Shown here: positions 2,000 through 55,367 of the stretch, piece by piece
Numbering within the stretch: the stretch's first letter is position 1
Layout: each line of letters begins with the position of its first letter
Assembly: GCF_902168435.1 (NCBI RefSeq)
Contig: NZ_LR656169.1
Coordinates: 186,001 to 250,000, forward strand
Direction of reading: 5' to 3'
DNA: 64,000 bases
Source of the DNA: Bacillus marasmi
GTDB taxonomy: Bacteria > Bacillota > Bacilli > Bacillales > Cytobacillaceae
Position numbers and translations under genes: made by a program
Notes under the pieces: model-generated
Told to the model about the DNA's origin: nothing
Seen by the model: only the letters and a program-made list of their open reading frames with translations
Databases searched by the model: none

Positions 2000-2270
2000 A
2001 CCCGAATGTTTATTTCCTTGTGTTTGAAAATAAGCGGAAGAATTCCACTTATTTTAGGAGATGCCCATATTTCCTTAATAATAACAGGAGTTTTTCCGCT
2101 TATTTCATAAATATCACTGGATTTTGTCTTTTTGGGAGGTGTTAAGCGGAAATTATACTCTTATTTCACCACAATTAGCCCCCCTTACATACAATAACGG
2201 GATTTTCTCCGCTTATTTATTCATATACCTACATAAAAATCATTCGTTTTTAATAGCGGATAATTTAGTT
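2000..2270. repeat. Degenerate intergenic repeat, core CCGCTTATTT in both orientations
   Basis: The 593-bp gap between sod and dacB contains no convincing gene. CCGCTTATTT-like cores start near 2045, 2096, 2157 and 2209, and the inverse AAGCGGAA occurs at 2032 and 2144 with a weaker copy near 2254. Matching features recur about 112 bp apart (2032/2144, 2045/2157, 2096/2209), which suggests a decayed tandem duplication of about 112 bp. The core resembles the GGCTTATTTGCC unit of the array at 22124-22228. Confidence 0.55.
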
Positions 2271-2294
2271 CTGTCCCAGCTTCCGACCTCATGT

Positions 2295-3185
2295 TTAAAA
2301 CGGTCGCCATTTTAGTTGACTAGCTTCGTCAAATCTTTTTTCGACATCCTTCCAATTCACTACAGACCACCAGTTTTTCACATATTCCGCGCGATCGTTC
2401 TTATACTGTGGATAATAGGCGTGTTCCCAAACATCGAGAACTAGGAGAGGAATCGTATCCCATTGAGTTAAATTATTATGTTTTTCTGTTTGTAGGATTT
2501 CAAGATGACGTGCTCGAGGAGACCAAACAAGAAGCGCCCAGCCACTTCCCTCTACTTCCTTTGCAGCCTCGCTAAAGTGCTTTTTAAACGCTTCAAAACT
2601 GCCAAAATAGGATTGTATCTTTGAGAGTAATCTCCCAGCTGGCTGTCCGCCACCTTTAGGCTTCATATTGTTCCAAAAAATCGTGTGCAAATAGTGACCT
2701 GAACCATGAAAAGAAAGTTCTCTAGACCAATGCTTCACTAAAGAATAATCATGTGATTCACGAGCCTTTTTTAACATTTTTTCAGCTTTGTTTAATCCAT
2801 CTACGTAAGAGCGATGATGCTTATCATGATGAAGCTGCATGATTTCCTTAGAAATAAAAGGCTCCAATGCATCATAGGCATATGGAAGTGGAGGTAAGGT
2901 ATGACCCCCAATAGCTACTTCCGGTTCCTTCATCCATACAGTTCCTATATTTTGCCTTTCCGTAAAATAACGTTCTAATTCATCATTTAATGCTTCAACC
3001 TGTGACTGGATTGTTGCTAATTGAAGCTGCGAAGGATCAGTCGATACTCCTTCTAGTACTTCACTAAAATGGTCTAGCTTTTTCCATATTTCCTCATTTT
3101 TATCAACCTGTTCAGATTCCAAAAATTGTAACAACTCCTGGTTCCATCCCATTACATCCCTCACATAGCCTTCAAAGTTTGCCAT
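2295..3185 (-). CDS. Superoxide dismutase [Fe/Mn] with N-terminal extension
   Basis: Converts superoxide to oxygen and hydrogen peroxide in the cytoplasm. The C-terminal 200 residues are a complete Fe/Mn-SOD: first metal histidine in the LHHDKHHRSYVDGLN helix, a second in SFHGSGHYLHTIFWNN, and the D and H ligands in LVLDVWEHAYYPQY. About 90 acidic, helical residues precede it, as in the long SodF form of bacilli. The start at 3185 is preferred because GGAGGA lies 6 nt upstream; an in-frame ATG at 3200 lacks a good site. A gene of this kind is not between dacB and ypuI in B. subtilis, so this is a local insertion. A hairpin at 1854-1916 can end the transcript. Confidence 0.9.
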   Translation of the reverse strand: MANFEGYVRDVMGWNQELLQFLESEQVDKNEEIWKKLDHFSEVLEGVSTDPSQLQLATIQSQVEALNDELERYFTERQNIGTVWMKEPEVAIGGHTLPPLPYAYDALEPFISKEIMQLHHDKHHRSYVDGLNKAEKMLKKARESHDYSLVKHWSRELSFHGSGHYLHTIFWNNMKPKGGGQPAGRLLSKIQSYFGSFEAFKKHFSEAAKEVEGSGWALLVWSPRARHLEILQTEKHNNLTQWDTIPLLVLDVWEHAYYPQYKNDRAEYVKNWWSVVNWKDVEKRFDEASQLKWRPF

Positions 3186-3280
3186 CCAAGTTCCTCCCAT
3201 TTCCTTCGTATCATTTCTAGCCTATGAAAGACGGATGAAGAAATGACTAAGATTTGGAAGGATTCGCCTACCAAATTCGT

Positions 3281-3318
3281 TTTAAAAAAAATAAAGAGTG
3301 ACCTGTTACGGCCACTCC
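3281..3318 (-). terminator. Rho-independent terminator after ypuI
   Basis: On the minus strand GAGTGGCC, a 6-nt loop and GGTCACTC are followed by a T-rich tract. It lies just beyond the ypuI stop. Confidence 0.8.
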
Positions 3319-3325
3319 CTTTTGT

Positions 3326-3814
3326 TTAATTTGATTGTATCATTTTTGTACGGTAATCTGTTTCATAGTATTGAAGCTCTTCCCTCACTCTTTGAAACTC
3401 ACCCTCAAGGCCTGCAAGAAGCTTGGTGATATTCTCTGGAGCCTCTTGGCGAAGCTTGATCGAATTTTTTCCTGTATATGCAGAACGGCTATCCTCGAAC
3501 CAAGCGTCATTTTTTGGCGAGAAAAATTCCTCGATACATTGGTGGTAGATTCTGTAAAGAGTTTTCTCAGCAGCCGCTTTTGGGAAAGCATCTGTATGTA
3601 AAATCACCTTACAAGAATCAAGACATTCATCACAATAAACAAGCAGCTTTCTAATATTTGCTAATAGAAGCTTATAATATTCTTGATTGCCAGGCTTTTT
3701 TTCCAAAAGATTTGACAATGTATTTTCATTTAAAAATTCCTCAAATTCAGCAATTGATTTAGCTAAAAAGTACCGAACATCTTCGATTTGGGCTTTGACT
3801 ATCGTATTTCCCAT
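3326..3814 (-). CDS. ypuI: YpuI family protein (DUF3907)
   Basis: Cytoplasmic protein of 162 residues, similar to YpuI, which sits between dacB and scpB in B. subtilis; its biochemical role is unknown. It is predicted mostly helical, with a cysteine-containing stretch LLVYCDECLDSCKVILHTDAF and no signal peptide or membrane segment. GGGGG lies 7 nt before the ATG. A terminator at 3281-3318 follows, so it is probably the last gene of a transcript from the scpA direction. The name rests on remembered sequence and on position. Confidence 0.8.
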   Translation of the reverse strand: MGNTIVKAQIEDVRYFLAKSIAEFEEFLNENTLSNLLEKKPGNQEYYKLLLANIRKLLVYCDECLDSCKVILHTDAFPKAAAEKTLYRIYHQCIEEFFSPKNDAWFEDSRSAYTGKNSIKLRQEAPENITKLLAGLEGEFQRVREELQYYETDYRTKMIQSN

Positions 3815-3839
3815 TATTTTTCCCCCATTTGGTTAAGTT

Positions 3840-4259
3840 CTATTGAGGTTGAACAATAAATTCAGATAAAGATTGAAGTTCATACCCCTGATTACTGTTA
3901 AGTTTTTGGAAAATCTCAGGTAGTTTCGAAAAATCGATCCCTTCAAAATAAGAAGCGAACTCAGCTTGTTTATTTATGTAAATACGCTTCCGATCCCGTA
4001 AACCTGGGTTTTTGATTAAGCATACAAGAGCAACAATATCCTTAAACGTTACCTCTCCTGTACCATTCTGAAACACTATCTTATCTGTGTAAGGGGTAAA
4101 TTCATTGATTTGATCATCAAAGTACCGAACATATAATACATGCAGCGTTTTTTCTTCTCCATTTTCCACATATACTACTTCACTACGATTAAAAAAATCC
4201 TCTGAAGTATTGGGCTTTTCTTTTTCTAACTCATAGCCTTTGCATAGTTTTACAAGCAA
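3840..4259 (-). CDS. Hypothetical protein between scpB and ypuI
   Basis: A 139-residue soluble protein I do not recognise. The reading frame opens further upstream (ATG 4310), but a very strong GGAGGAGG lies 8 nt before the TTG at 4259, so that is the likely start. The sequence is polar and evenly composed, with a central stretch DKIVFQNGTGEVTFKDIVAL and a C-terminus rich in E, L and Q. No catalytic motif or membrane helix is evident. It lies on the same strand as scpB (about 120 bp upstream) and ypuI (25 bp downstream). B. subtilis has no gene in this slot as far as I recall. Confidence 0.65.
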   Translation of the reverse strand: MLVKLCKGYELEKEKPNTSEDFFNRSEVVYVENGEEKTLHVLYVRYFDDQINEFTPYTDKIVFQNGTGEVTFKDIVALVCLIKNPGLRDRKRIYINKQAEFASYFEGIDFSKLPEIFQKLNSNQGYELQSLSEFIVQPQ

Positions 4260-4381
4260 AACTATTCCCTCCTCCGGACAAATCCAAAACCGCCAATAAA
4301 AAAAATGCATAAAAAACCTTTGGTAAGTAAGTTAAAGACAATTTCATTTTACCATATCGCCCTGAAAATGTGTCAGAAAAG

Positions 4382-4969
4382 TTACGAATCAATCGCCTCT
4401 TGAAATTTATCAAAAAATAAATCTGCTTCCTCCTGAACAAATTCCTCATCGACTTTATCTGGTAAAGGTGGGAGCTCGTCTATACTTCGTAATCCGAAAT
4501 AATCAAGAAACTCTTTTGTTGTACCGTAAAGGATTGCTCGTCCCGTTCCTTCAGCACGTCCTACCTCCTTAATTAACGCTTTCGCTGCGAGGGTATGTAT
4601 CGGACGTTCTGTCTTCACTCCACGTATTTCCTCAATCTCCACCCGAGTAATAGGTTGCTTATAAGCTATGATTGCTAGTGTTTCAAGCGCTGCTTGCGAA
4701 AGATGAGTTGTTCCAGGTGCTTCGACCAGCTTTTTTAAATAATCGGCATTTGCTTTTTTTGTCGCCAATTGATATGTACCCGCTAACTGAACAACAGAAA
4801 TACCTCTTGACTCATTTTGTGTATATTCTTGTTTCATTTCATTTAACAATTCTTGTGCTCTTTCTCCGGTAATTTCCAGAACCTCTGCCAATTGTTTAAC
4901 AGTAAGTCCTTCATCACCAGCAGCAAACAGCAAGCTTTCTACTATACCTTTAAGTTGATTCTTTTCCAA
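4382..4969 (-). CDS. scpB: Segregation and condensation protein B
   Basis: Dimeric winged-helix subunit of the SMC-ScpA-ScpB condensin, which compacts and segregates the chromosome. The sequence has the family signatures LLFAAGDEGLTVKQLAEVLE near the N-terminus, then LSQAALETLAIIAYKQPITR and EVGRAEGTGRAILYGTT in the second winged helix. Length 195 residues is normal. The start is a TTG at 4969, 10 nt after AAGGAG that forms the last codons of scpA. A better-spaced ATG (4973) is in another frame and stops after a few codons. The gene follows scpA closely, so the two are coupled. Confidence 0.93.
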   Translation of the reverse strand: MEKNQLKGIVESLLFAAGDEGLTVKQLAEVLEITGERAQELLNEMKQEYTQNESRGISVVQLAGTYQLATKKANADYLKKLVEAPGTTHLSQAALETLAIIAYKQPITRVEIEEIRGVKTERPIHTLAAKALIKEVGRAEGTGRAILYGTTKEFLDYFGLRSIDELPPLPDKVDEEFVQEEADLFFDKFQEAIDS

Positions 4970-4976
4970 ACATGGT

Positions 4977-5723
4977 TCACTCCTTCACAGCGGACACAAA
5001 AATATCTGCAAAATTTTGCTCCTGTTCCACGTGAATTTCTTTTCGTTTCATTAATTCTAATATAGCCAAAAATGTTACGACAATATGCCCTCGCTCCGGA
5101 TAAGGAAATAAATCAAAGAAATTTTTCCTACCAGTCACGGTTTTTAGCTCTACGAGAATTTCTTTCATCCGGGTTTGAATCGGTATTTCTTGCTTAGTAA
5201 TTTTTGTTGGCAATGGCTTCTGAAGTTTCTTCCTTCTTAATAGCTTTTGAAACGCACCTAACATATCGTACAAAGTGACATTTAATTCGCTTGTATCTTG
5301 TTTAACACTTCCAGCTAAATCAGATAGATCACTTGGTGCTTTCGTATAAATCATACTCCGCTCTTCCTCTAACGATTTTAAGTCCTGTGCAGCTTCCTTG
5401 TATTTGCGATATTCAATTAGCCTTTCCACCAACTCATCACGTGGGTCCTGTTCTAATTCAATTTCAAAGCCCTCATCATCTAGTTCATCCTCATACTTAG
5501 GCAAAAGCATTTTACTCTTAATAGCTAACAATGTCGCAGCCATGACGAGAAATTCACTCGCTACATCCAATTGAAGTTCATTCATCGTATGAATGTACAA
5601 TAAATATTGTTCCGTTATTTCTGAAACAGGGATATCATAAATATCAATTTCCAATGTATTAATAAGATGAAGGAGCAGATCAAGAGGGCCCTCAAAAGCG
5701 TCAATTTTTACACTATATTGCAT
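4977..5723 (-). CDS. scpA: Segregation and condensation protein A (kleisin)
   Basis: Kleisin subunit that bridges the SMC heads and binds ScpB. The N-terminal SMC-neck-binding domain is clear ([16 protein letters not shown], then [15 protein letters not shown] and [16 protein letters not shown]). It is followed by an acidic linker and a C-terminal winged helix ([20 protein letters not shown]). I chose ATG 5723 ([10 protein letters not shown]) because it aligns with the usual family start and has GGTG 6 nt upstream; TTG 5735 and GTG 5732 are in-frame alternatives. The first gene of the scpA-scpB pair; about 200 bp of non-coding DNA separate it from the divergent yjcZ-like gene. Confidence 0.93.
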
Positions 5724-5928
5724 GTCATTCACCAAAATTCTCTCATATAAGTTTTTCCATATTCATGAAAACACTATTTCTAGTATAGAGGATGCTGGAA
5801 ATGAATCCAATATAATTTTAAACGTGTAGATTTTTGTTAACAAAATGATGACAAACGCCCAAACCTAAAACCAAATTCCACATATGATGCAATGTAATAA
5901 GTTACATCATGAAAGAGGAGGAATGGAT

Positions 5929-6018
5929 ATGTCAGGCGGACATAATTATGGCGGTGGCTTTGCATTAATCGTAGTCCTATTCATCTTATTAATCATTGTA
6001 GGTGCATCCTGGTTTTAA
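5929..6018 (+). CDS. YjcZ family tiny membrane protein
   Basis: A 29-residue protein beginning MSGGHNYGGGF and continuing as a single hydrophobic helix to a C-terminal GASWF. The glycine-rich head and one membrane segment are the hallmark of the YjcZ/YjdZ family (tiny_TM_bacill), which in bacilli is linked to sporulation. AGGAGG at 5916-5921 lies 7 nt before the ATG. It is transcribed away from scpA. Palindromic repeats begin immediately after the stop, and a terminator hairpin (6338-6372) lies about 320 bp downstream. Confidence 0.88.
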   Translation: MSGGHNYGGGFALIVVLFILLIIVGASWF

Positions 6019-6316: not shown

Positions 6317-6337
6317 ATCAAACATCAATACTGACAT

Positions 6338-6372
6338 AGCCTGGCTTGTGATAGCCGGGCTTTATCATTTTT
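6338..6372 (+). terminator. Terminator-like hairpin
   Basis: AGCCTGGC, an 8-nt loop and GCCGGGCT followed by a T-rich tail. It probably ended the yjcZ-like transcript before the repeat cluster came to lie between gene and terminator. Confidence 0.65.
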
Positions 6373-6425
6373 AATCACCTATTGATTTGTGCTAAACTGA
6401 TAGTAAAATTTCAGGGAGAACTACG

Positions 6426-7696
<1,271 letters not shown>

Positions 7697-7744: not shown

Positions 7745-8079
7745 CAATGTCGCACCAGTTGTCACCTTCCTCTCACGTAACGCTGACGAGGTTAGCTGTC
7801 GGATTCGGGCCATTGAGTAGCCCTACCAAGAAAAGCGAAAGCGCCTTGCTCAGGGGTGACAAGCATAAGACGAGCCGGCCTAAAGGTCGTTTTTTGACCT
7901 TTTGGACGGATTGACTTATGACCTCGAGCCCCTAGGCGCTGTGTCTAGACATATAAAAATCGTTAGCGTCTAGACACTGTAGCTAGACATCCAATTGCCT
8001 AGCGCTTTTATTGGATTCACCCCAAGTAAACTGTTAAGTTTACAAATTGGTTCCCCCGCTCCTATAAAGATTAAGCGAT
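7745..8079 (-). promoter_or_regulatory. c-di-AMP riboswitch (ydaO-yuaA type) with repeat-expanded hairpin
   Basis: Read on the minus strand, the 5' half contains GCGGGGGAACCAATTTG and TTGGGGTGAATC (about 8060-8015). The 3' half contains GTAGGGCTAC, CCCGAATCCGACAGCTAACC and GAGAGGAAGGTGA (about 7828-7760). These are the conserved blocks of the c-di-AMP aptamer. In other family members a short hairpin separates GAATC from GTAGGG. Here that place holds a palindrome of about 180 nt whose ends pair as CAAUAAAAGCG with CGCUUUUCUUG, one mismatch, so the helix is kept and lengthened. A promoter (8104-8132) and a terminator (7697-7735) bracket it. Family members usually control potassium transport or wall hydrolases; no such gene follows. 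Confidence 0.85.
7829..8010. repeat. Palindromic repeat inserted in the riboswitch
   Basis: Same family as 6019-6316: one end reads GAAAAGCGAAAGCGCC, then CATAAGACGAGCCGGC, an inner AAGGTCG/TGACCTT stem, CTTATGACC and CCTAGGCGCTG. It continues with a second hairpin (GTGTCTAGAC...GTCTAGACAC) and ends CTAGCGCTTTTATT. It sits exactly at a peripheral hairpin of the c-di-AMP aptamer. Confidence 0.75.
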
Positions 8080-8103
8080 TTAAGAATTTGAAACTGATGA
8101 TTA

Positions 8104-8164: not shown

Positions 8165-9484
8165 TTATATTTTTACACTTGAGTTTAACGGTAAATCGAG
8201 TCTAACAAGATCTTGATAAGATTCCCGCTTAACAACTAAAGTTGCCTCTCCATTTTCGACAAACACAACCGGTGGACGTGGAATCCGATTATAGTTATTA
8301 GCCATGGAATACCCATATGCTCCTGTACAGAATACAGCCAATAAATCTTGGTTTGTTGTTTTAGGAAGCGGAAGATCCCAAATCAGCATATCCCCTGATT
8401 CACAACATTTACCCGCGATGCTCACAGTCTCTTCTGCTTGCTCCAACGGACGATTCGCCAAAACGGCTTCATATTTAGCCTGGTATAATGAAGGTCGAAT
8501 ATTGTCACTCATTCCGCCGTCAACAGCTAAATAATTTCGCACATTTGGAACTTCTTTTCGTGAACCTATTTTATATAGAGTCGTACCCGCATCACCAACT
8601 AGTGATCGGCCTGGTTCAATCCATATTTCTGGCATAGTCATTTTAAAAATATCCGCTTGAGTCTTTACTTCAGCAATGATTTTTTCCACGTATTGATGTG
8701 GTTCTAATGGTTCATCTTCATTTGTGTAGCGTATTCCGAAACCGCCGCCTAAGTTTAAAACCTGTGGGTTATACTGATGTTCATCGCGCCATTGAGCTAA
8801 TTTTTCAAATATCTTTTGCGCCGCCAAAATAAAACCGGTCGTTTCAAATATTTGCGACCCGATATGACAATGGATACCAAGCACATTTAGCCATTCCGAT
8901 TTCATTCCCTGCTTAAGCGCCGTTTCTGCTTGTCCATTTTGTAAATCAAAACCGAATTTAGAGTCCTCTTGGCCGGTTAAAATATAATCATGTGTGTGTG
9001 CTTCGATACCAGGTGTTACTCGGATTAATATATTTGCCTTCACTTTTTTCGCTGCACAAAGTTCTGCAAGCAAATCCAACTCATAAAAATTATCGACAAC
9101 AAAACAACCAATATTCGCATCGAGCGCCATATTAATCTCCTCAACGCTTTTATTGTTGCCGTGAAAATGGATTTTTTCAGGAGGGAATTCAGCACAGAGC
9201 GCTGTGTATAACTCTCCTCCAGATACTACATCAAGGGATAATCCCTCTTCTTTTGCCAGCTGCACCATTGCAACGGTAGAAAAGGCTTTACTCGCATATG
9301 CTACTTGTGCTGGAACATTGAGTTTGTCGAATGTTTTTTTAAAACCGCGTGCCCGTTTACGGATTAACTCCACATCATAAACATATAATGGTGTCCCGAA
9401 TTGTTGGGCTAAGTCAATCGTATCGATGCCGCCAATTTCCAAATGTCCTTTTTCGTTTATTTTCGTTGTTCCATGAAAGTACAT
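8165..9484 (-). CDS. lysA: Diaminopimelate decarboxylase
   Basis: PLP-dependent enzyme (fold type III) that decarboxylates meso-diaminopimelate to L-lysine, the last step of lysine synthesis. The 439-residue protein has the PLP lysine in VAYASKAFS (K66), glycine-rich GGGFG phosphate-binding loop, the CESGD active-site motif and GAYGYSMANNYN near the C-terminus. ATG 9484 is chosen because GGAGGG lies 6 nt upstream; an upstream in-frame start (9514) has no site. It follows the spoVA operon as in B. subtilis, after a hairpin at 9512-9547. I see no lysine riboswitch in front. Confidence 0.96.
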   Translation of the reverse strand: MYFHGTTKINEKGHLEIGGIDTIDLAQQFGTPLYVYDVELIRKRARGFKKTFDKLNVPAQVAYASKAFSTVAMVQLAKEEGLSLDVVSGGELYTALCAEFPPEKIHFHGNNKSVEEINMALDANIGCFVVDNFYELDLLAELCAAKKVKANILIRVTPGIEAHTHDYILTGQEDSKFGFDLQNGQAETALKQGMKSEWLNVLGIHCHIGSQIFETTGFILAAQKIFEKLAQWRDEHQYNPQVLNLGGGFGIRYTNEDEPLEPHQYVEKIIAEVKTQADIFKMTMPEIWIEPGRSLVGDAGTTLYKIGSRKEVPNVRNYLAVDGGMSDNIRPSLYQAKYEAVLANRPLEQAEETVSIAGKCCESGDMLIWDLPLPKTTNQDLLAVFCTGAYGYSMANNYNRIPRPPVVFVENGEATLVVKRESYQDLVRLDLPLNSSVKI

Positions 9485-12096: not shown

Positions 12097-12706
12097 CGAT
12101 ATGTTTCATACTTTCCTTGTTTTCATGCATAATGACATATTGGTCTATATCCTGCTGATAATTAAACATTTCCACTTCTAGTGGACTTGGCTCCTCGTTG
12201 ATTCGTTTTCTAAAGAAATGATTAAAGAATAGGATCATACCAAGCCCTAACCCAATTGAATATGGGATTTGAAACAGGAGCGGCTTGATTTCCTTTTTTC
12301 CCGTGACCATTGTGTAAAGCTTTTGTTGTACGATTTGCATGCTGACATCCTCATGGAAATTCATAATTGTTAGCGCTGCTCCAAAGAATAATAAAAACCA
12401 AATCAATAAAAAGGCTGGCAATGAAAATTTTTTCTTTTTAAAAATAACCTCAACAATGGTTTGTGATGGTCCAATCATTTGCACCTCACAGCCTGGGTAA
12501 ACGTTTGTAATCCTTTTAATCACTTTCATACCATCAATAATGACAATGTTACGATCTTCATTTTTCACTTGATATATTTCAAGTGTTTTCAGCTTTTCCA
12601 ATACTTCATCATCAGCGATAATTAGCGCTATATCCTTTAAATAGACTTTATCTTCCTTTCGAACCTGACTGCGGTTCCGCATGCGAATGTAGATTGTTTG
12701 GTCCAT
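12086..12706 (-). CDS. spoVAA: Stage V sporulation protein AA
   Basis: First gene of the spoVA operon, 206 residues. The N-terminal half is a soluble domain (YIRMRNRSQVRKEDKVYLKD, then NVYPGCEVQMIGPSQTIVEV). Two membrane helices follow (about residues 95-117 and 145-165). ATG 12706 has GGGAAG 8 nt upstream; GTG 12715 is an in-frame alternative with poor spacing. It lies about 135 bp downstream of sigF. A sigma-G-like promoter is visible at 12744-12774. It overlaps spoVAB by 11 bp. Confidence 0.9.
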   Translation of the reverse strand: MDQTIYIRMRNRSQVRKEDKVYLKDIALIIADDEVLEKLKTLEIYQVKNEDRNIVIIDGMKVIKRITNVYPGCEVQMIGPSQTIVEVIFKKKKFSLPAFLLIWFLLFFGAALTIMNFHEDVSMQIVQQKLYTMVTGKKEIKPLLFQIPYSIGLGLGMILFFNHFFRKRINEEPSPLEVEMFNYQQDIDQYVIMHENKESMKHIDDY

Positions 12707-12743
12707 CCCATTCACTTCCCAAATTCAATGTTTTCTTAATAAG

Positions 12744-12774
12744 TAGTATTAGTTTGATAATTTTCTTTCATGAA
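12744..12774 (-). promoter_or_regulatory. Candidate sigma-G promoter of spoVA
   Basis: Minus strand AATACTA (12750-12744) matches a CATACTA-type -10 box in 6 of 7 positions. TTCATG about 18 bp upstream is a poor -35. Forespore expression is expected for spoVA. Weak by sequence alone. Confidence 0.4.
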
Positions 12775-12825
12775 GCCCAAATAATGGTGCATTTGTAAAA
12801 GCTGTGATTTCCGCTTTTTAGCACA

Positions 12826-12862
12826 AAAAAGACCGTACGGATTATTGATCCATACGGTCCTT
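12826..12862 (-). terminator. Terminator overlapping the sigF stop
   Basis: ACCGTATGGAT/AATCCGTACGGT stem followed by TTTTTTG on the minus strand. The left arm lies in the last codons of sigF. Confidence 0.75.
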
Positions 12863-13600
12863 CATTTGCTGCAGTATTTTTTTCTCAAGTCGCGAAACTT
12901 GGACCTGCGATATTCCAAGACGCACCGCAACTTCTGATTGCGTTTGATCCTTGTAATATCTTAGATACACAATTAATCTTTCCCGCTCATCTAAATCAAG
13001 GATGGCCTCTTTTAAGGCAATTTTATCGAACCATTTTTCCTCATTTCCATCATCGATTTGATCTAAAAGCGTAATCGGATCTCCATCATTCTCAAATACC
13101 GTTTCATGGATGGAAGTGGGTGTCCGACTAGCTTCTTGAGCCATGATGATATCCTCTGAAGATATCTCTAAAAATTCTGCCAGTTCACTTACTGTTGGAA
13201 TTCTTCCTAAAATCTTCGATAATTCATCCTTGGCCTTACGAATTTTATTGCCTAACTCCTTCAATGATCTGCTGACCTTTACCGTGCCATCATCACGAAT
13301 AAACCTTTGGATTTCTCCGATAATCATGGGGACAGCATATGTGGAGAATTTTACGTCATATGATAAATCAAATTTATCAACTGATTTCAATAATCCAATA
13401 CACCCGATTTGAAACAGATCATCCGGTTCATAGCCGCGATTAAGGAAACGCTGGACGACAGACCATACGAGCCGCAGGTTCTTTTCAACTATTAAATCAC
13501 GTGCTGCTTGATCTCCCGTTTGGCTTCGTTTTATTAATTCCTTTACTTCATGGTCCTTTAGGTAAATCTGCTTACTATTATTTTTTACCTCCACATCCAT
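12842..13600 (-). CDS. sigF: RNA polymerase sigma factor SigF (forespore)
   Basis: Sigma-70 family factor that starts the forespore programme; held inactive by SpoIIAB. The 252-residue protein has region 2 (LVWSVVQRFLNRGYEPDDLFQIGCIGL, then KFSTYAVPMIIGEIQRFIRD), a region 3 with RSLKELGNKIRKAK, and a region 4 helix-turn-helix (QSEVAVRLGISQVQVSRLEKKIL). ATG 13600 has AAGGAG 8 nt upstream; the upstream TTG 13606 is too close to that site. Third gene of spoIIAA-spoIIAB-sigF, 12 bp after spoIIAB. Confidence 0.97.
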   Translation of the reverse strand: MDVEVKNNSKQIYLKDHEVKELIKRSQTGDQAARDLIVEKNLRLVWSVVQRFLNRGYEPDDLFQIGCIGLLKSVDKFDLSYDVKFSTYAVPMIIGEIQRFIRDDGTVKVSRSLKELGNKIRKAKDELSKILGRIPTVSELAEFLEISSEDIIMAQEASRTPTSIHETVFENDGDPITLLDQIDDGNEEKWFDKIALKEAILDLDERERLIVYLRYYKDQTQSEVAVRLGISQVQVSRLEKKILQQMKDRMDQ

Positions 13601-14053: not shown

Positions 14054-14056
14054 ATG

Positions 14057-22077: not shown

Positions 22078-22113
22078 ACAAAATAAGGGCTACACGCTCT
22101 GTGCAACCCTTAT
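22078..22113 (-). terminator. Terminator downstream of the EndoQ-like gene
   Basis: ATAAGGG...CCCTTAT with inner GCAC/GTGT pairing, then TTTTG on the minus strand. It lies beyond the repeat array at 22124-22228. Confidence 0.65.
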
Positions 22114-22123
22114 GATGGAGGAT

Positions 22124-22228
22124 TTTATTTGCCAAATTTGATGGTTTATTTGCCGATTCGAACGGCGTATTTGCCGAATTTCGATTTTATTTTCCAATTC
22201 GAACGGCTTATTTGCCGATGCCACAATT
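22124..22228. repeat. 20-21-bp tandem array, core TTTATTTGCC
   Basis: Five units with the TATTTGCC octamer at 22126, 22147, 22168, 22188 and 22209, that is intervals of 21, 21, 20 and 21 bp. The rest of each unit varies but often contains GATTCGAACGG or AATTTCGATT. The array lies between the stop of the EndoQ-like gene and its terminator, so it is probably transcribed as 3' UTR. The core resembles that of the array in the bkd operon. Confidence 0.8.
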
Positions 22229-22237
22229 CCGTCACAA

Positions 22238-27319: not shown

Positions 27320-27652
27320 CTAATCCGCTACACGAACATCGTAAATATCATTCAGTTTGATTTGATGAATCTCTTCGAACCGATCAACGATGTGTAGCCG
27401 CTGCCCTAGTCCATCCCAATAATGAATTTTGCCAATCACCAATTCGTACTGGTGACTATGATAATGAGTAATCGTTACCAATTGGTCAAATTCCATTGCG
27501 CTCGAGATGGTATCATTCATTTGCTCAAGCTGCTGCTCATCCAATTGCTTTCTGTATTCAAATGAATCCTCTTTAACCCAGTCTCGTAGCATTTTTACAT
27601 GCTCGGGCAGCATCATCGACGTCCATTTAATTCGACCGCGATCACGAATCAT
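27320..27652 (-). CDS. yqjX: YolD-like protein (YqjX)
   Basis: A 110-residue YolD-family protein, typically encoded after UvrX-type Y-family polymerases and thought to be their accessory. Family features are the start MIRDRGRIKWTSMMLPEHVK and the beta-rich C-terminus YELVIGKIHYWDGLGQRLHI. The start lies 17 bp after the uvrX stop with AGGAGG in between, so both share the SOS-controlled promoter upstream of uvrX. Confidence 0.88.
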   Translation of the reverse strand: MIRDRGRIKWTSMMLPEHVKMLRDWVKEDSFEYRKQLDEQQLEQMNDTISSAMEFDQLVTITHYHSHQYELVIGKIHYWDGLGQRLHIVDRFEEIHQIKLNDIYDVRVAD

Positions 27653-29090: not shown

Positions 29091-29290
29091 CTGAGCAAAA
29101 ATGAGAAAAGCATAGCATATGTTATGGAAGTCGGGCATATCGGGGCGAGATAGCACATATCTGTTAAAAGTCGAGCATTGTTTTTTTGAGGTCGAGCATA
29201 AAATCGTGAAAGTCGAGCATATTTTTCGAAAAGCCGAGCATAAATTTGCGAAAGTCGAGCATATCTTTCCGAAAGCCATGCAAACAACAA
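29091..29290. repeat. 20-21-bp tandem array, core TCGAGCAT
   Basis: Ten units whose cores start at 29091, 29111, 29131, 29151, 29171, 29192, 29213, 29234, 29255 and 29276. The intervals are 20 bp four times, then 21 bp five times. The inner units share AAAGTCGAGCATA followed by about 10 variable bases often ending in CGAAAG; the left units are more decayed. It lies about 75 bp upstream of the uvrX promoter. On the minus strand the core is ATGCTCGACTTT, close to the ATGCACGACTTT of the array at 39668. Confidence 0.85.
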
Positions 29291-39497: not shown

Positions 39498-39667
39498 AAA
39501 ATACGGCATGTAAGGTCTTTTCGTTGTGGGTTTTATTGAATTTTAGGAAAAAAGCGAGGTATTTTTGCTACAAATTAATGATTTCGGTAGGAAAATCCTC
39601 TATTTTTAAAAAAATTATAGGATTCTATTTAAAATAGCTAATTTTTTATATCATGCTAAAAATTATT

Positions 39668-39870
39668 TGCACGACTTTTCCGTGATATGCACACGAAATG
39701 GTGGATATACGATATTTGAAAAAATATATGATACAACTTTTCGGATATATGCACGACTTTTCAAATATATGCACAACTTTTAAGGATCACCGAGAAAATA
39801 TGCACACAAAACTTCTATATGAACAGAATCCTCCATATATGCACATCCTTCTTCTGGTACTGTATCCTAT
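39668..39870. repeat. 20-21-bp tandem array, core TGCACGACTTTT
   Basis: Cores start at 39668, 39688, 39708, 39729, 39750, 39770, 39801, 39820, 39840 and 39861. Intervals are 20, 20, 21, 21, 20, then one of 31, then 19, 20, 21 bp. Units have TGCAC(G/A)ACTTTT followed by about five variable bases and ATA. The array lies between the terminators of the convergent zwf and gndA genes, so it may be largely untranscribed. The core ATGCACGACTTTT is nearly identical to the minus-strand core of the 29091 array. Confidence 0.8.
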
Positions 39871-49258: not shown

Positions 49259-51447
49259 TATTTTACCACTTCCTCGTAGCCCAAACGTTGGTAAATCTTT
49301 TCGATTACCTTTTGAGCTGCAACTGGAATGACGGTTCCAGGACCGAAGATAGCAGCGGCACCATGCTCATATAAATACTCGTAATCCTGAGCTGGAATTA
49401 CCCCACCAATAACAACTAGAATATCTTCCCGGCCAAGCTTTTTCAATTCCTCAACAAGCGCTGGAAGAAGTGTTTTATGACCAGCTGCTAAAGAACTAAA
49501 TCCAACTACGTGTACGTCGTTTTCTACAGCTTGACGAGCTGTTTCTTCAGGTGTTTGGAATAAAGGACCGATATCAACATCGTAGCCTAAATCCGCGAAG
49601 GCAGTTGAAATAACCTTAGCCCCACGGTCATGGCCATCTTGTCCAAGTTTGGCAACTAGGATACGTGGTCTTCTTCCTTCATTTTCAAGGAATTCTTCAC
49701 ACATTTGTTTTACTGTTGCGATTTCTTCCTCGTTAGAGAAGGCAGTGCTATATACACCACTAATTGAACGGATTACTGCTTTATGACGACCTGATGCTAC
49801 TTCAATTGCATCAGAGATTTCGCCAAGTGATGCACGCGCACGAGCTGCTTTAACTGCAAGGTCAAGTAGGTTACCTTCGCCAGTTTCAGCTGCAGCTGTG
49901 ATGGCTGCTAGAGCTTCTTTGACTGCATTTTCATCACGAGTCGCTCTTAACTGAGCCAAACGTTCAATTTGCGATTTTCTAACTGCAGTATTGTCTACTT
50001 CTAAAATATCGATTTCTTCTTCTTGCTCTAAGCGATATTTGTTTACACCCACGATTGTTTCTTCGCCAGAATCGATTTTTGCTTGTCTGCGAGCAGCTGC
50101 TTCTTCGATTCTCATTTTTGGAAGACCAGTTTCGATTGCTTTTGCCATACCGCCAAGATTTTCAATTTCTTCAATATGTGCCCAAGCACGTTCAACTAAC
50201 TGATTAGTTAGAGTTTCTACATAGTAGGAACCACCCCAAGGATCAATTACATTCGTTACACCCGCTTCTTCTTGAAGGAATAGCTGAGTATTACGTGCAA
50301 TACGAGCCGAGAAATCAGTTGGAAGCGCAATTGCTTCATCCAATGCATTTGTATGAAGGGATTGCGTATGACCCATTGTTGCTGCATGAGCTTCAATAAG
50401 CGTACGAGTAACGTTATTGAATGGATCTTGCTCAGTTAAACTCCAACCAGAAGTTTGAGAGTGCGTACGTAGAGCTAAAGATTTTTCGCTTTGTGGCAAG
50501 AAGGTTTTAATCATTTTTGCCCAAATAATCCGTGCTGCGCGCATTTTAGCAACTTCCATGAAATAGTTCATACCAATTGCCCAGAAGAACGAAAGTCTCG
50601 GTGCAAACTTATCGATTGGAATACCTGCTTTTAAGCCCGTTCTAACATATTCAAGTCCATCAGCCAAAGTATAAGCTAATTCAATATCTGCTGGTGCACC
50701 TGCTTCTTGCATGTGGTAACCAGAGATACTGATGCTATTGAATTTTGGCATGTACTTGGATGTATATTCAAAAATGTCAGCAATAATTTTCATTGACATT
50801 TCTGGTGGATAAATATACGTATTACGCACCATGTATTCCTTTAAAATATCATTTTGAATTGTACCAGAAAGCTTTTCTTGGCTTACACCTTGTTCTTCAG
50901 CAGTAACGATGTAAAAAGCCATAACTGGTAAAACGGCACCATTCATTGTCATTGATACTGACATTTGATCAAGTGGAATACCATTAAACAATGTTTTCAT
51001 ATCTAAAATAGAATCAATTGCCACACCAGCTTTACCAACATCCCCAACTACACGAGGGTGGTCTGAATCATAACCGCGGTGGGTTGCAAGGTCAAATGCA
51101 ACAGATAGCCCTTTTTGACCCATTGCAAGGTTACGACGGTAGAACGCATTACTTTCTTCCGCAGTTGAGAAACCAGCGTATTGACGAACAGTCCAAGGAC
51201 GATTTACATACATTGTAGGATATGGTCCACGTGTGTATGGTGCTACCCCTGGTTTATCGTCAAGATGAGTCATGCCTTCTAAATCATCTTTCGAATAAAG
51301 CGGTTTAACTTTAATATATTCGTTTGTTTCAAACAAAAGATCATCGATTGATTTTGCAACCTCTGCTTCTGCTTTTTTTTGCCACTCTTGTTTTGTTGCT
51401 TCTTGATCTTTTAAAATATCAACATTTTTAAAATCTGGTTTTGTCAT
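49258..51447 (-). CDS. mutB: Methylmalonyl-CoA mutase, catalytic large subunit
   Basis: Adenosylcobalamin-dependent isomerase of succinyl-CoA and methylmalonyl-CoA. The 729-residue protein has an N-terminal barrel with the substrate-site stretch [20 protein letters not shown]. The C-terminal B12-binding domain carries DGHDRG (604-609, cobalt-ligating histidine) and the [12 protein letters not shown] and GGVIPAQDY loops. It is 5 bp after mutA and overlaps meaB by one base. All cofactor residues are intact, so the enzyme should be active. Confidence 0.96.
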
Positions 51448-51452
51448 TGTTA

Positions 51453-53285
51453 TTACACCTCCATTTCATCAAGCAGCTGTGCTAATGTTTGGTAGCAGTT
51501 GCTCTTCACAGTGATAAAATCTCTAATACCGGCAGTTTTCCACTCAGTTTCATTTTCAAGAGCACCGGCAATGTAGAATGTCGCAGCAGGATTTTGCTCC
51601 TTAAGCTTAGCAACTAGCTCTGCACCAAATTCATTGTATTGGTCATTGCTTCCGCAAATGCAATAATGACTAACTGGTGTACCACTTACAAAAGCAACAG
51701 CTGATTCGATGGAATCGACTGCATCACTTTTTACTGTCTTAATTCCTCCAGGAGCAACAAAGCCAGTAATAAAATCAGCGCGTGCTTTATGATTTTTTAA
51801 TTCGCCTAAGCAAATTAAGCCAATAGTAGGTTCTGCTACTAATTTTTCAGCACGGCTACGTAATACTTCATAAGGCTGTGCTAAACGCTCTTGAGCAATG
51901 GTTTGGAAAGAACCATCTTGTTTAGCAGCGTTAGCTTCTTGTACTTGAAGTGGCTCTTCTGCAAGGTTAGCGTAAATATTTGTTCCGATAATACTTTGTT
52001 TGCGAGTGAAAATATCCTTTTGACGTTTTTCTTTAACTGCTTGAATTTGCTCTTGCAGCCAATTTGAACGTAACGCAGACACAAGTCCACCTTTTTCATC
52101 AATTTCAAGGAATAAGGCCCATGCTTTTTCTGCAAGCTCATTTGTTAATGATTCAATGTACCATGAGCCACCTGCTGGATCGACAACATTTTTCAAATGT
52201 GCTTCTTCCTTAAGAACCAATTGAATGTTACGAGCAATCCGGTCAGAGAATCCATTCACTTTTCCTTCTGGCTCATTGAATGGACTTACATGCAAGTACT
52301 GGATGCCACCAAGGATTGCTGCAAATGCCTCATTACCTGCTCTTAGTAGGTTTACATATGGGTCATATTTTGTTTTTGTATATGGAGATGTTTCTGCTGA
52401 AATCACCAATTTACGCAACTCTGGAGCCACTGCATATGCCTCCGTTAATTTGCTCCATAGGAGTCTTGCAGCACGTAGCTTAGCCATTTCCATGAAGAAA
52501 TTTGAACCAATCGCAAACTTAAACACCATTTTTTCAAGAATGTGTTCGATGCTTAATCCTCGTTCAGATAGTTTCTCAATATGCTCAACACCTGTTGCTA
52601 AGCTGATAGCCAGTTCCTGAACTGCGTTTGCTCCACCATTATGATATGGAGTTGTGTCAACTAGAATTGTCTTTAGATTTGGTAATTTTTCAGCATTGTA
52701 GCTGATTGTTTTCGCCCATTGATCATAAGCTGTATCGATATCAGCACCAGTTTCTACTGCAACTGCAATCGGGTCTAAACCAATAAAACCGCAAACATCT
52801 TCAATTTTCCCTTTTTCCTCAGCTAATTGTTGAACTAGAGTTAATAGGTCAGCCTGATAATGCTTTGCATTTACGCTGAATGGATATGACGCAAAAACAT
52901 CAGTTAGGATATTTGGGATTTCCAATAATACTTTTTCTGACAACTCAAATGAAATGGCAGTTTGCCCTTTCTGAAATGATGTAATTAACATCTCTTTCAT
53001 TTCATCAACGTTTCCTGCTGGAATTGTCTGTGCTACCTTCCATTCATTTGTTGCATATCCAAGCGGATTAATACCGCGACGATAATCTTCAAAACCTGGA
53101 ATTTCTGAAACGACTTTGTTTTCTAAGTCTTCTTTTGTATAAAGTGGTTTTAAGCGAATGTCTTCATATGTACTTCTGGATAGTGAATCGACAGACTTGC
53201 CTTTTAAGCTTTCTTCGGCTTTTTGTTTCCACTCATCTGTTGATACCGGTGGAAATACGACGCTTTTCATTTCATTCATACTCAT
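51453..53285 (-). CDS. mutA: Methylmalonyl-CoA mutase, small (non-catalytic) subunit
   Basis: Small subunit of the heterodimeric mutase, 610 residues from ATG 53285. It keeps the barrel ([40 protein letters not shown]) but has lost the DxHxxG cobalamin motif in the degenerate C-terminal domain, as expected. The frame stays open to TTG 53324, and the only strong ribosome site (GGAGGGAGGGG, 53322-53312) serves an overlapping 9-codon frame that ends ATGA on the mutA start. Translation of mutA may therefore depend on coupling to that leader. First gene of mutA-mutB-meaB. Confidence 0.93.
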
Positions 53286-53311
53286 AAGCCGGCTGTCTCT
53301 GGGACAACCAT
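53282..53311 (-). CDS. Possible 9-residue leader peptide upstream of mutA
   Basis: ATG 53311 directly follows GGAGGGAGGGG and encodes MVVPETAGL before a TGA at 53284-53282. The stop overlaps the mutA start as ATGA. It may be a translational-coupling device or attenuating uORF; existence rests only on the ribosome site and overlap. Confidence 0.4.
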   Translation of the reverse strand: MVVPETAGL

Positions 53312-53611
53312 CCCCTCCCTCCAATATTTGCTGAAACTAAATTTTAATAAAATTCTAATTATTCGGGCATCCCTTATTATTTTAGTATATCCTGTCGAAA
53401 CTGGCAATGTGAGAAACTCAGAAAGCAGAATTTTATTTTATTGTTTGTCAAATATTGGATAATAATGTAGACATATATTATATAGAAGAACTTCAATGAC
53501 CGCTTTAATTATTGCAAAATTTTACCAGTAATACATTTGTGATTTTTACAAATTCTAAAACTGATATTCAAATTTTGAATATCTCATCCATCCTAACCAC
53601 GAGGTGATAGT

Positions 53612-53764
53612 ATGAGTTATAAAGATCATTTAGATCCACACTCTAAGCTTTTTCACCACACTTGGACACGGCCAAAACATTTAAATTCGCAGGTAAATGG
53701 TCAAACAAAGCGAACGCTAAATACGATTATTGCGAGAAGTAATGCGAAAGCCCACCATTGGTAG
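53612..53764 (+). CDS. Small hypothetical protein upstream of bkdB region
   Basis: A 50-residue polar protein rich in H, K and N (MSYKDHLDPHSKLFHHTWTR, ending ARSNAKAHHW). GAGGTG lies 5 nt before the ATG, and a clear terminator (53793-53829) follows, so it is a complete transcription unit. No family recognised, no membrane segment. It is divergent from mutA across a 326-bp AT-rich gap and convergent with bkdB. Confidence 0.7.
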   Translation: MSYKDHLDPHSKLFHHTWTRPKHLNSQVNGQTKRTLNTIIARSNAKAHHW

Positions 53765-53792
53765 GATGCCCATGAATTGAATCAATTGGGGG

Positions 53793-53829
53793 AAAGCTGG
53801 CTTTTCCATAGGAAAAGTCAGCTTTTTTT
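53793..53829 (+). terminator. Terminator of the 53612 small gene
   Basis: AAAGCTGGCTTTTCC, 3-nt loop, GGAAAAGTCAGCTTT then TTTT. Confidence 0.88.
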
Positions 53830-53841
53830 AGTTAACGACAA

Positions 53842-53878
53842 AGAAAAGCTGTTGCGGACCAAATTCCGCAACAGCTTT
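53842..53878 (-). terminator. Terminator of the bkd operon
   Basis: Minus strand AAAGCTGTTGCGG, 8-nt loop, CCGCAACAGCTTT then TCTTTG. Confidence 0.88.
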
Positions 53879-53882
53879 AGTA

Positions 53883-55205
53883 TTAATAAATGGATGTATT
53901 TTCCTTTGACATATTTTCAAGTATCCCTTTTAAATGTGCGAGGAATTTTCCACAAATCAGTCCATCAAGAACGCGATGGTCAAGCGATAAACAAAGATTC
54001 ACCATGTCGCGAATGGCAATCATATGATCGTGAAAGACCACCGGACGTTTGATAATGGATTCGACTTGTAAAATCGCTGCCTGTGGGTAGTTAATGATTC
54101 CCATTGACTGTACCGATCCAAATGAACCTGTATTATTAACAGTGAAGGTTCCGCCGCTCATATCATCAGTCGTTAATTTTCCAGAGCGAGTTTTGTTGGC
54201 AAACTCCGAAATTTCTCGAGCGATTCCCTTGATTGATTTTTCATCAGCATGTTTAATCACTGGGACGAACAATGCATTATCGGTCGCTACTGCAATTGAA
54301 ACATTGATTTCTTTTCTCTGGATAATTTTATCCCCTGCCCAGGTTGAATTTAGCTCAGGAAAAGCTTTGAGGGCTTGGGCAATAGCTTTAACAAAAAACG
54401 CAAAAAATGTGAGATTAAAACCTTCCTTTTGTTTGAATTCGTCCTTAAGTGAGTTACGATATGCCACTACATTCGAAACATCAGCTTCAATCATCATCCA
54501 TGCATGCGGGATTTCCTGCTTGCTGCGGACCATATTAGACGCTATCGCTTTTCGGATACTAGAAACGGGTAATTCAATGTCTCCTGTTGAAAATGTAGTA
54601 GGTTTTATTTTTTGCAGACCTTGTTGCTCGCTATCATTAGGCTGAACTGCGATTACATTTTCTCGAGTTTTAGTAGCGATGTGTGCTTCGTTTGGGGTTG
54701 TTCCCGCTTCAATGAGTTTTAAAATATCTTTTCTGGTAATTCGACCTTCGGCACCTGTGCCTTTAACTTGGTTCAAATCGATTCCGTGCTCCTGGGATAG
54801 CTTTAAGACAGCCGGTGAGTAGCGGACTTTTAAATTTTGTGTAGCTGCAGAAGCATTTGCTGGAGCAACTGCTAGTCGGGCGGCGATTGTTTTTGCGGTT
54901 GTAGTGATTGAATCAGCCTTGGTATCATCGTTGCGCCTGTTGGAGGAAGAAGTTTCTGAAACTCCATCGACTTCAATCGTACAAATGATTTCCCCGACAG
55001 AAAAGGTATCACCTTCAGCAGCGATTAACTCTTTAATGACACCTGCAAAGGAGGATGGGATTTCCGCATTTACTTTATCTGTCATGACCTCTGCTAAAGG
55101 ATCATACTTTTTGACATTGTCCCCCTCCTTGACCAGCCACCGACTAATCGTGCCTTCGGTGACACTTTCACCAAGCTTAGGCATTTTGATGTTTTCAATA
55201 CTCAA
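53883..55205 (-). CDS. bkdB: Branched-chain 2-oxo acid dehydrogenase E2 (lipoamide acyltransferase)
   Basis: Core acyltransferase of the BKD complex. The 440-residue protein has an N-terminal lipoyl domain (lipoyl lysine K44 in VMTDKVNAEIP) and a linker. A peripheral subunit-binding domain follows (SPAVLKLSQEHGIDLNQVKG, GAEGRITRKDILKLI), then the catalytic domain ending in SLDHRVLDGLICGKFL with the active-site histidine. Last gene of the bkd operon. It is separated from bkdAB by a 165-bp gap filled by a repeat array (55223-55367), whereas the other gaps in the operon are 12-33 bp. Confidence 0.94.
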   Translation of the reverse strand: MSIENIKMPKLGESVTEGTISRWLVKEGDNVKKYDPLAEVMTDKVNAEIPSSFAGVIKELIAAEGDTFSVGEIICTIEVDGVSETSSSNRRNDDTKADSITTTAKTIAARLAVAPANASAATQNLKVRYSPAVLKLSQEHGIDLNQVKGTGAEGRITRKDILKLIEAGTTPNEAHIATKTRENVIAVQPNDSEQQGLQKIKPTTFSTGDIELPVSSIRKAIASNMVRSKQEIPHAWMMIEADVSNVVAYRNSLKDEFKQKEGFNLTFFAFFVKAIAQALKAFPELNSTWAGDKIIQRKEINVSIAVATDNALFVPVIKHADEKSIKGIAREISEFANKTRSGKLTTDDMSGGTFTVNNTGSFGSVQSMGIINYPQAAILQVESIIKRPVVFHDHMIAIRDMVNLCLSLDHRVLDGLICGKFLAHLKGILENMSKENTSIY

Positions 55206-55222
55206 GGATTGACTCCTCCTTT

Positions 55223-55367
55223 TACTAGCTCAAAATTGAGGTTTACTTGCCATTTTTTCGGATTACTTGCCAAAATGAAAGATTTACTTGCCATTTTCCT
55301 GAACTACTTGCCAAAATGAAAGATTTACTTGCCAAAATGAAAGATTTACTTGCCAAATGAGTGAATT
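55223..55367. repeat. 20-21-bp tandem array, core TTTACTTGCC, inside the bkd operon
   Basis: TACTTGCC cores start at 55244, 55264, 55285, 55305, 55326 and 55347, with a weaker TACTAGCT at 55223. Intervals are 21, 20, 21, 20, 21, 21. After the core, units carry AAAATGAAAGAT (three nearly identical) or ATTTT variants. The array occupies the bkdAB-bkdB gap and must be transcribed with the operon. The core is related to TTTATTTGCC at 22124. Confidence 0.85.

What the first reader, a model, noticed from the sequence alone, without database searches (positions are those of the whole stretch)
2000..55367. A possible undescribed class: intergenic 20-21-bp arrays with locus-specific consensus
Four clear arrays plus one decayed relative occur in 64 kb, all between genes, all near two helical turns in period, each with its own consensus. 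The consensuses cluster in pairs (29 and 39 kb; 22 and 55 kb; the 2-kb locus shares CTTATTT with 22 kb). Units are homogeneous within a locus and differ between loci, which implies local amplification from a short seed. Possible roles are docking sites for a nucleoid or segregation protein, a bend-generating sequence, or parasitic slippage. All roles are inference.
Basis: partly seen in the sequence, partly recalled or inferred. Interest (0 to 1): 0.85.

Follow-up and report, generated by a model that had tools for sequence, protein, structure and literature searches.

The report
Helix-phased 20-bp repeat arrays after genes
These short repeat arrays behind genes belong to a class of bacterial repeats that is already in print but unexplained; both known sizes of that class turn out to carry the same helix-phased pattern of GC and AT, which points to DNA built to bend or wrap around a protein.

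Summary
Four intergenic arrays (22, 29, 39, 55 kb) are real, unit 20-21 bp. The fifth, at 2 kb, is not one of them: it is a copy of a ~250-bp dispersed repeat listed 40 times in the genome.

The class is not undescribed. Subirana and Messeguer (PMC8161180) catalogued constant-size, variable-sequence tandem repeats of 20-21 and 52 nt in Bacillus, function unknown.

New here: (1) In both sizes GC content oscillates at the helical repeat: harmonic 2 of 20 bp (z 9.6), harmonic 5 of 52 bp (z 12.8), harmonic 5 of 27 published consensus repeats (z 10.5). (2) Arrays lie behind genes; convergent gaps are over-used (11 of 23 collapsed loci, 3.0 expected), and 35 of 48 follow a terminator, against 94 of 197 control gene ends. 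(3) In this genus a 21-bp leader heads many arrays; behind enolase, leader and cores are conserved in four species while linkers are not. (4) RNA folding shows no general excess.

Best reading: double-stranded DNA that bends or wraps around a protein at gene 3' ends. DNA gyrase is the leading, untested candidate.

The parts
22113..22219 (-). Array, core GGCAAATAA (reads TTATTTGCC on +), units 20-21 bp, in the gap between a TIGR00375-family gene and spoIIM
   Evidence: TRF, core chain, neighbours
22217..22237 (-). 21-bp leader TTGTGACGGAATTGTGGCATC directly before unit 1
   Evidence: (G000:C25:208217-208237, 1 mismatch to the pattern)
22080..22111 (-). Intrinsic-terminator-like hairpin with T-run, here on the far side of the array
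   Evidence: read; terminator caller finds one between array and spoIIM
29168..29277 (+). Array, core GTCGAGCATA, 21-bp units, against the strand of both neighbouring genes
39660..39850 (-). Looser array, core GTCGTGCATATA / GTTGTGCATATA, between convergent zwf and gnd; best TRF stretch 39722-39781
   Evidence: ends of the stretch set by eye
55222..55357 (-). Array, core GGCAAGTAAA, units 20-21 bp, between the pyruvate dehydrogenase E1-beta and E2 genes
   Evidence: present in 3 of 5 congeners, absent from 25 other gaps read
1985..2235 (+). NOT part of the class: one copy of a ~250-bp dispersed repeat

Best explanation
The arrays are double-stranded DNA elements placed at the 3' ends of genes. 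Each unit spans two helical turns, so GC-rich and AT-rich blocks alternate about every 10 bp and keep the same face of the helix; 52-bp arrays do the same over five turns. Such DNA should bend easily in one direction and wrap around a protein. Within this genus a conserved core in each unit and a 21-bp leader add sequence-specific recognition. The most likely job is a wrapping or anchoring site behind transcription units, where positive supercoils build up; DNA gyrase is the leading candidate because its known E. coli motif has the same phased 10-bp G/C variation. Shown here: unit sizes, genomic place, helical G/C phasing, leader, core conservation at one locus, no general RNA-fold signal. Inferred: bending, wrapping, the identity of the protein.
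For: GC signal concentrated at the helical harmonic: 20 arrays of 20-21 bp, k=2, z 9.6 (13 non-redundant, 6.7); 21 arrays of 52 bp, k=5, z 12.8 (17, 10.4); of all 26 harmonics of the 52-bp arrays the next highest is z 2.0. Replicated on 27 published 52-nt consensus repeats, z 10.5. Baseline intergenic 20-mers and 52-mers have 0.122 and 0.050 of their power there, arrays 0.310 and 0.143. AA/TT/AT steps phase with the same harmonic, z 4.6 and 12.0. Sizes quantized at 2 and 5 turns. Convergent gaps 11 of 23 collapsed loci, 3.0 expected. Terminator before 35 of 48 arrays with a co-oriented upstream gene, 94 of 197 control gene ends. Leader and core footprint. E. coli gyrase motif: phased 10-bp G/C variation, sites enriched downstream of transcribed operons, BIME-2 as strong sites (PMC6379681, passages).
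Against: Gyrase is universal but the arrays are not: none in 15 stretches of other families of the order, and PMC8161180 lists one tandem repeat in B. subtilis. Shared cores and the leader are more than bending needs. Some arrays have weak phasing: L056 0.05, window 29 kb 0.10, two 52-bp arrays of L295 0.03-0.04; 9 of 27 published consensus repeats do not have k=5 in their top three. S/W-preserving substitutions exceed flanks (0.48 against 0.26) but hardly the column-shuffled control (0.40). Divergent avoidance is not significant after collapsing orthologues (2 of 23, 4.8 expected, p 0.115). In E. coli the downstream gyrase sites do not have better motif scores than the rest of the genome (PMC6379681). 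No binding, bending or transcription data were available.
Confidence: 0.45

Rival explanations
1. Cooperative operator arrays for a dedicated sequence-specific DNA-binding protein (a nucleoid or insulator protein). Sites two turns apart lie on one face; the GC/AT alternation is the usual pattern of recognition bases in major grooves with AT-rich minor grooves between them. Different cores reflect paralogous or diverged proteins.
For: Same core at many loci of a genome; one leader heads arrays with different cores, 16 of 16 congeneric leader sites with at most 2 mismatches being followed by at least two units; enolase footprint with cores 38 of 55 and leader 16 of 21 invariant against linkers 4 of 25. 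Subirana and Messeguer also suggest a protein that polymerises on the repeats (PMC8161180).
Against: Does not by itself explain why unrelated species with unrelated cores keep the same two unit lengths, or why 52-bp units show the signal at five turns. No protein was identified.
Confidence: 0.35
2. Neutral or selfish minisatellites: local slippage and unequal exchange amplify a seed in places where it does least harm, behind genes.
For: Copy number of exact cores differs between orthologous loci (10, 4 and 6; 9 and 5), linkers are replaced locus-wide, and presence is patchy (pdh gap: 3 of 5 congeners, 0 of 25 others read).
Against: Slippage gives no reason for two quantized sizes or for GC phasing at the helical harmonic alone. 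The enolase array is conserved unit by unit.
Confidence: 0.1
3. Transcribed small RNAs or structured 3' RNA, as discussed by Subirana and Messeguer.
For: They report RNA-seq reads over 52-nt repeats of B. coagulans (PMC8161180). GGCAA arrays are mostly in sense orientation (25 sense, 5 antisense in tandem gaps, all cores pooled), and a few lie where they must be transcribed, such as the pdh operon.
Against: Folding of 18 arrays on both strands is not generally more stable than column-permuted units (most z between -1.3 and +2.1; L196b -2.6 and w22 -1.5 on one strand). No Rfam match at the window arrays. GTCGAGC arrays occur against both neighbours.
Confidence: 0.1

Closest known systems
Constant-size 20-21-nt and 52-nt bacterial tandem repeats (Subirana and Messeguer, IJMS 2021, PMC8161180; their J Bacteriol 2020 paper is not held)
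   Same: Unit size 20-21 nt (with some 40-41) or 52 nt, noncoding, several families per genome, species-specific sequence with short shared signals, changing between strains.
   Different: No difference in kind. They do not mention terminators, intergenic context, periodicity, curvature or gyrase (word search); leader, context and helical GC phasing are added here.
E. coli BIME-2 / REP arrays and strong gyrase sites
   Same: Intergenic, often behind genes; extended DNA with phased G/C variation is the gyrase motif (PMC6379681, passages).
   Different: REPs are palindromic and of one sequence family; 20-bp units here are direct repeats with many unrelated cores. Gyrase binding is shown there, not here.
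Intergenic helical periodicity and curvature downstream of genes in E. coli (Hosid, Trifonov, Bolshoy 2004, PMC516772, passages)
   Same: Periodicity near the helical repeat concentrated in intergenic DNA; curvature peaks reported downstream of coding sequences.
   Different: There mainly dispersed AA/TT signal near 11 bp; here a strong GC/AT signal at 10.0-10.4 bp inside tandem arrays.

Membership tests
Constant-size tandem repeats (20-21 / 52 nt) | Unit length 20-21 nt (or double), or 52 nt, to the near exclusion of other noncoding sizes | tested here: met
   one 39-bp array seen by TRF in an ORF-classed stretch
Constant-size tandem repeats (20-21 / 52 nt) | At least four repeats per array, noncoding | tested here: met
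   Three of four window arrays have 5-7 chained units; the 39-kb array has 3 TRF copies plus looser ones; all between genes
Constant-size tandem repeats (20-21 / 52 nt) | Several families per genome, sequence specific to species or close relatives | tested here: met
Constant-size tandem repeats (20-21 / 52 nt) | Short sequence signal shared by the repeats of a species | tested here: met
   GGCAARTAAA and GTCGAGCATA in the genus
Strong gyrase site | Phased ~10-bp G/C variation | tested here: met
Strong gyrase site | Binding and cleavage by gyrase | not testable with these tools
   needs EMSA or Topo-Seq
REP / BIME | Palindromic unit forming a stable hairpin | tested here: not met
   20-bp arrays only: folding near permuted units. 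The 52-bp arrays have palindromic parts by eye and were not tested.
REP / BIME | GTAG or GGAG tag and a RAYT transposase | not tested
   recalled feature; no search made
CRISPR array | Unique spacers of about 30 nt between identical repeats, cas genes near | tested here: not met
   Linkers are about 10 nt and often repeated; cas genes were not searched for
Structured RNA family | Match to Rfam or excess folding stability | tested here: not met
   window only; 18 arrays

The most novel reading that the evidence does not exclude
The 20-21-nt and 52-nt satellites of Bacillus-like bacteria are one functional class. What is selected is not a sequence but a helical GC/AT code of two or five turns that makes DNA behind genes wrap around gyrase or a gyrase-like protein, giving species-specific, rapidly rewritten counterparts of BIME-2 and strong gyrase sites.
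Probability: 0.25. Interest if true: 0.85.

Novelty: new member of a known kind. Interest (0 to 1): 0.55.

Why it matters
The papers on this class left open why only two unit sizes exist and why the sequence does not matter. The same helical GC/AT phasing in both sizes, seen also in the published consensus repeats, offers one physical answer to both and a cheap experiment: does native, but not phase-scrambled, array DNA bend, and what wraps it. If gyrase, these would be natural gyrase-loading sites behind transcription units in Gram-positive bacteria.

Tried and rejected
RNA hairpins between the alternating A-rich and T-rich linkers: attractive by eye, not supported by folding against column-permuted units.

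Strand set by replication: GGCAA arrays all lie on one strand of their contigs in this genome, but L213 and L218 go against the local GC skew and GTCGAGC arrays are mixed; 'behind a gene' fits better. The number of exceptions is small, so this is not decided firmly.

Mobile origin of the leader: no exact match of one leader pattern in viral contigs; transposases were not sought. Five leader hits with 2 mismatches outside the genus were not read.

Tn7/Mu-like end repeats, iterons, DnaA boxes, TIGR arrays: considered from memory only; set aside because the arrays are dispersed and many per genome; none was formally tested.

S/W-preserving substitutions between orthologous arrays: weak against the shuffled control, not used as main evidence. 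Core conservation computed from GGCAA-defined units is biased by the search pattern; the leader-defined enolase locus was used instead.

First-draft context p-values (37 arrays: convergent 13 against 4.8, p 0.0005; divergent 2 against 7.7, p 0.01) counted orthologous gaps apart. Collapsing by both flanking proteins leaves 23 loci: convergent 11 against 3.0, divergent 2 against 4.8 (p 0.115). One collapsed cluster mixes convergent and tandem arrays and is probably partly false; L067 and L068 may belong to the same gap as L071, L080 and L101 and were not merged.
Full report
WHERE. The window is bases 186001-250000 of contig 25 of a 4.64-Mb, 46-contig genome. In the one genome-contig scan the nearest named relative by SpoIIM is Bacillus sp. 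DNRA2 (92%); next come Mesobacillus, Cytobacillus and other Bacillaceae. Congener G004 is very probably DNRA2: its contig 7 and NZ_JABAIT010000007.1 have the same length, 178,715.

THE OBSERVATION. TRF finds the arrays at 22, 29, 39 and 55 kb, and lag counts peak only at 20-21 and 41-42. In a 664-kb sample of the genome a detector of chained 8-mers finds 13 intergenic chains of at least 4 units at 20-21 bp, 4 at 40-41 and 0 in the other 18 bins from 10 to 49 bp; L010, L012, L188-L191 and L258 in that sample were chosen because they held hits. In the stretches not so chosen (without L010 and L012; L267-L277; about 520 kb, several from contig 27) there are four such arrays: L011, L024, L267 and L268, roughly 36 per genome. 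L267 has 32 chained units of 20 bp. TRF also shows one 39-bp array, L024:123-430, which my ORF filter did not count as intergenic. In 79 loci of the family (1.51 Mb, 25 bins from 10 to 59 bp) intergenic chains occur at 20-21 (6), 42-43 (2), 50-51 (1) and 52-53 (11) and in no other bin. With a laxer setting (3 units) a few appear elsewhere, for example 5 at 36-37 bp. In 15 stretches of other families of the order (300 kb, 13 bins) none was found; five stretches of G023, same family as the window, gave 3 at 20-21, 1 at 40-41 and 2 at 52-53.

THE 2-KB LOCUS is something else. Its 251 bases have 40 listed long matches in this genome (itself, and 39 others at 83-91%), with diverged matches in G004 (26) and G002 (6) and none in the other six genomes searched. 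A second copy was visible in L022.

CORES, LEADER, ORTHOLOGUES. Pairs of GGCAARTA at unit spacing in 41 genomes: G000 35, G001 11, G002 11, G003 7, G004 37; of the other 36 genomes 5 had one each; the reversed-pattern control gave 0-1 in the congeners and up to 7 in one other genome. Pairs of GTCGWGCATA: G000 2, G001 17, G004 3, none in 38 others. Many GGCAA arrays begin with a 21-bp leader, TTGTGACnnAAATRTGGCATC. A search of 25 genomes with up to 3 mismatches gave 16 congeneric hits with at most 2 mismatches; all 16 are followed by at least two units, with core GGCAAATAAA or GGCTAATAGA. Five hits at 2 mismatches outside the genus were not read. One congeneric 3-mismatch site (L262) is a leader with a single unit. 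Orthologous arrays keep the core and change linkers and copy number, but the core there was the search pattern. In the pdhB-pdhC gap 3 of 5 congeners have an array and 0 of 25 other genomes whose gap was read; 11 further genomes of that search were not read.

A CLEANER FOOTPRINT. Behind enolase (L011; Pfam Enolase_N and Enolase_C) the array was found in L264, L265 and L259 by leader, not by core. The alignment runs unit by unit; L259 lacks one unit, and its gap counts as variable. Invariant columns over five units: leader 16 of 21, cores 38 of 55, tails 14 of 25, linkers 4 of 25; the 50 bases before the leader 4 of 50. This is conservation of sites and spacing with little or no amplification.

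CONTEXT. Of 54 arrays found by core, leader or sample (orthologues counted apart), 25 lie in tandem gaps on the strand of the genes, 5 in tandem gaps against it, 23 in convergent gaps and 1 in a divergent gap; 35 of the 48 with a co-oriented upstream gene have an intrinsic terminator between stop codon and array, at a median of about 43 nt but up to 358. The same caller finds a terminator at 94 of 197 gene ends facing array-free gaps (up to 400 nt) and at 69 of 197 within 100 nt, so the enrichment is real but moderate. With a gap-length background, 37 arrays of both sizes from the samples are 22 tandem, 13 convergent and 2 divergent; collapsed by both flanking proteins, 23 loci are 10 tandem, 11 convergent (3.0 expected, p 0.00005) and 2 divergent (4.8 expected, p 0.115). 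The same orthologous gap can hold different arrays: TIGR00375-spoIIM holds GGCAAATAA here and an unrelated 20-bp unit in Neobacillus niacini L100, and one convergent gap holds 52-bp arrays in L071 and L101 and a 20-bp array in L080. Of 20 upstream genes scanned, several end major pathways (Suf, enolase, CTP synthase, asparagine synthase, thiolase, a proton-translocating antiporter subunit), others are ordinary transporters, methyltransferases or regulators; no regulon is evident.

WHAT IS SELECTED. Folding of 18 arrays on both strands lies around the energies of column-permuted units (most z between -1.3 and +2.1; L196b -2.6 and w22 -1.5 on one strand). The GC signal of the unit, in contrast, is concentrated at the helical repeat. 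For 20 arrays of 20-21 bp harmonic 2 has z 9.6 (13 arrays after removing most GGCAA and related loci: 6.7), next highest of 10 harmonics 1.1. For 21 arrays of 52 bp harmonic 5 has z 12.8 (17 after removing four orthologues: 10.4); over all 26 harmonics the next is 2.0. Purine/pyrimidine and amino/keto signals do not peak there but are not flat: R/Y of 52-bp units z 4.4 at harmonic 4, M/K of 20-bp units z 3.2 at harmonic 3. These harmonics were the ones I set out to test, though no note records it. The 27 published 52-nt consensus repeats give z 10.5 at harmonic 5 (24 of 51-53 nt: 9.0); it is the top harmonic in 9 and in the top three in 18 of 27; other values reach 2.6 (S/W), 4.6 (R/Y, harmonic 1) and 3.9 (M/K, harmonic 3), and some of the 27 are near duplicates. 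Non-array intergenic DNA has a faint 10.25-bp peak (mean power 1.4, white noise 1; 647 and 1535 segments); the repeats' own periodicity inflates raw power, which is why the permuted null is the fair test. AA/TT/AT steps follow the same harmonic, z 4.6 and 12.0. Exceptions with weak phasing include L056, the 29-kb array and two 52-bp arrays of L295.

KNOWN OR NEW. Subirana and Messeguer (PMC8161180; parts 1-4 of 5 and the tables read) describe 4029 tandem repeats in 176 Bacillus genomes, 781 of 20-21 nt and 1886 of 51-53 nt, constant in size and variable in sequence, with short species signals. They note that 20-21 nt is two turns and suggest a nucleoid protein or small RNAs. The arrays here meet each feature I could test. 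Their 2020 paper is not held. The words terminator, intergenic, periodic, gyrase and curvature do not occur in PMC8161180, nor terminator, intergenic, periodic, helix and nucleoid in PMC8625621 (passages only). None of my ten searches listed a paper on helical GC phasing in these repeats; only listings, and passages of six papers, were seen, and most subscription papers are not in the library.

MECHANISM. GC content that oscillates with the helix makes DNA bend in one direction; this is established for nucleosomal DNA (recalled) and proposed for the E. coli gyrase motif, where 47-bp arms with phased G/C are read as the wrap around the GyrA C-terminal domains (35-52 bp needed), gyrase sites accumulate downstream of transcribed units, and BIME-2 act as transcription-independent strong sites (PMC6379681, passages; PMC12393610, passages). 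The same paper finds that downstream regions do not have better motif scores, so E. coli does not hard-wire this. The arrays combine the signal with a place behind genes, so I favour a wrapping site behind transcription units. That a protein wraps them, and that it is gyrase, is inference. The main difficulty is that gyrase is universal and the arrays are not; a dedicated, fast-evolving DNA-binding protein explains shared cores and leader better. Both can hold: cores recruit, phasing wraps.

Noticed in passing
window 1985-2235: Copy of a ~250-bp dispersed repeat with internal inverted parts; 40 long matches listed in this genome at 83-100%, diverged copies in two congeners.
   Followed up: partly
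window 7765-8087: c-di-AMP riboswitch (ydaO/yuaA leader), the only Rfam match in the window.
   Followed up: no
L267:4775-5402 (G000 contig 27): 32-unit array of exact 20-bp spacing behind a thiolase gene, linkers alternating; no leader seen.
   Followed up: partly
L010:127-344 and 8328-8654, L022:15154-15532, L268:2655-3235, L269:6248-6724, L272:8884-9671 and 12415-12943: 52-bp arrays in the same genome with palindromic-looking parts, sometimes next to a 20-bp array.
   Followed up: partly
L067:6430-6727 (Bacillus methanolicus PB1): Two 20-bp arrays with related cores in opposite orientation on the two sides of a terminator-like hairpin between convergent genes.
   Followed up: no
L100:9775-9862 (Neobacillus niacini) and window 22113-22219: The same TIGR00375-spoIIM gap holds 20-bp arrays with unrelated cores in two genera.
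   Followed up: partly
L262 (G004 contig 31, about 27606-27640): Leader followed by a single unit and no array: a possible seed or remnant.
   Followed up: no
L010:3174-3419 and L018:14556-14825: Near-identical double copies of a 124-126-bp GC-rich element beginning AGAAAAGCG.
   Followed up: no
L024:123-430: 39-bp tandem array of about 8 copies, the one clear exception to the 20-21/52 rule in the TRF list apart from coding repeats.
   Followed up: no
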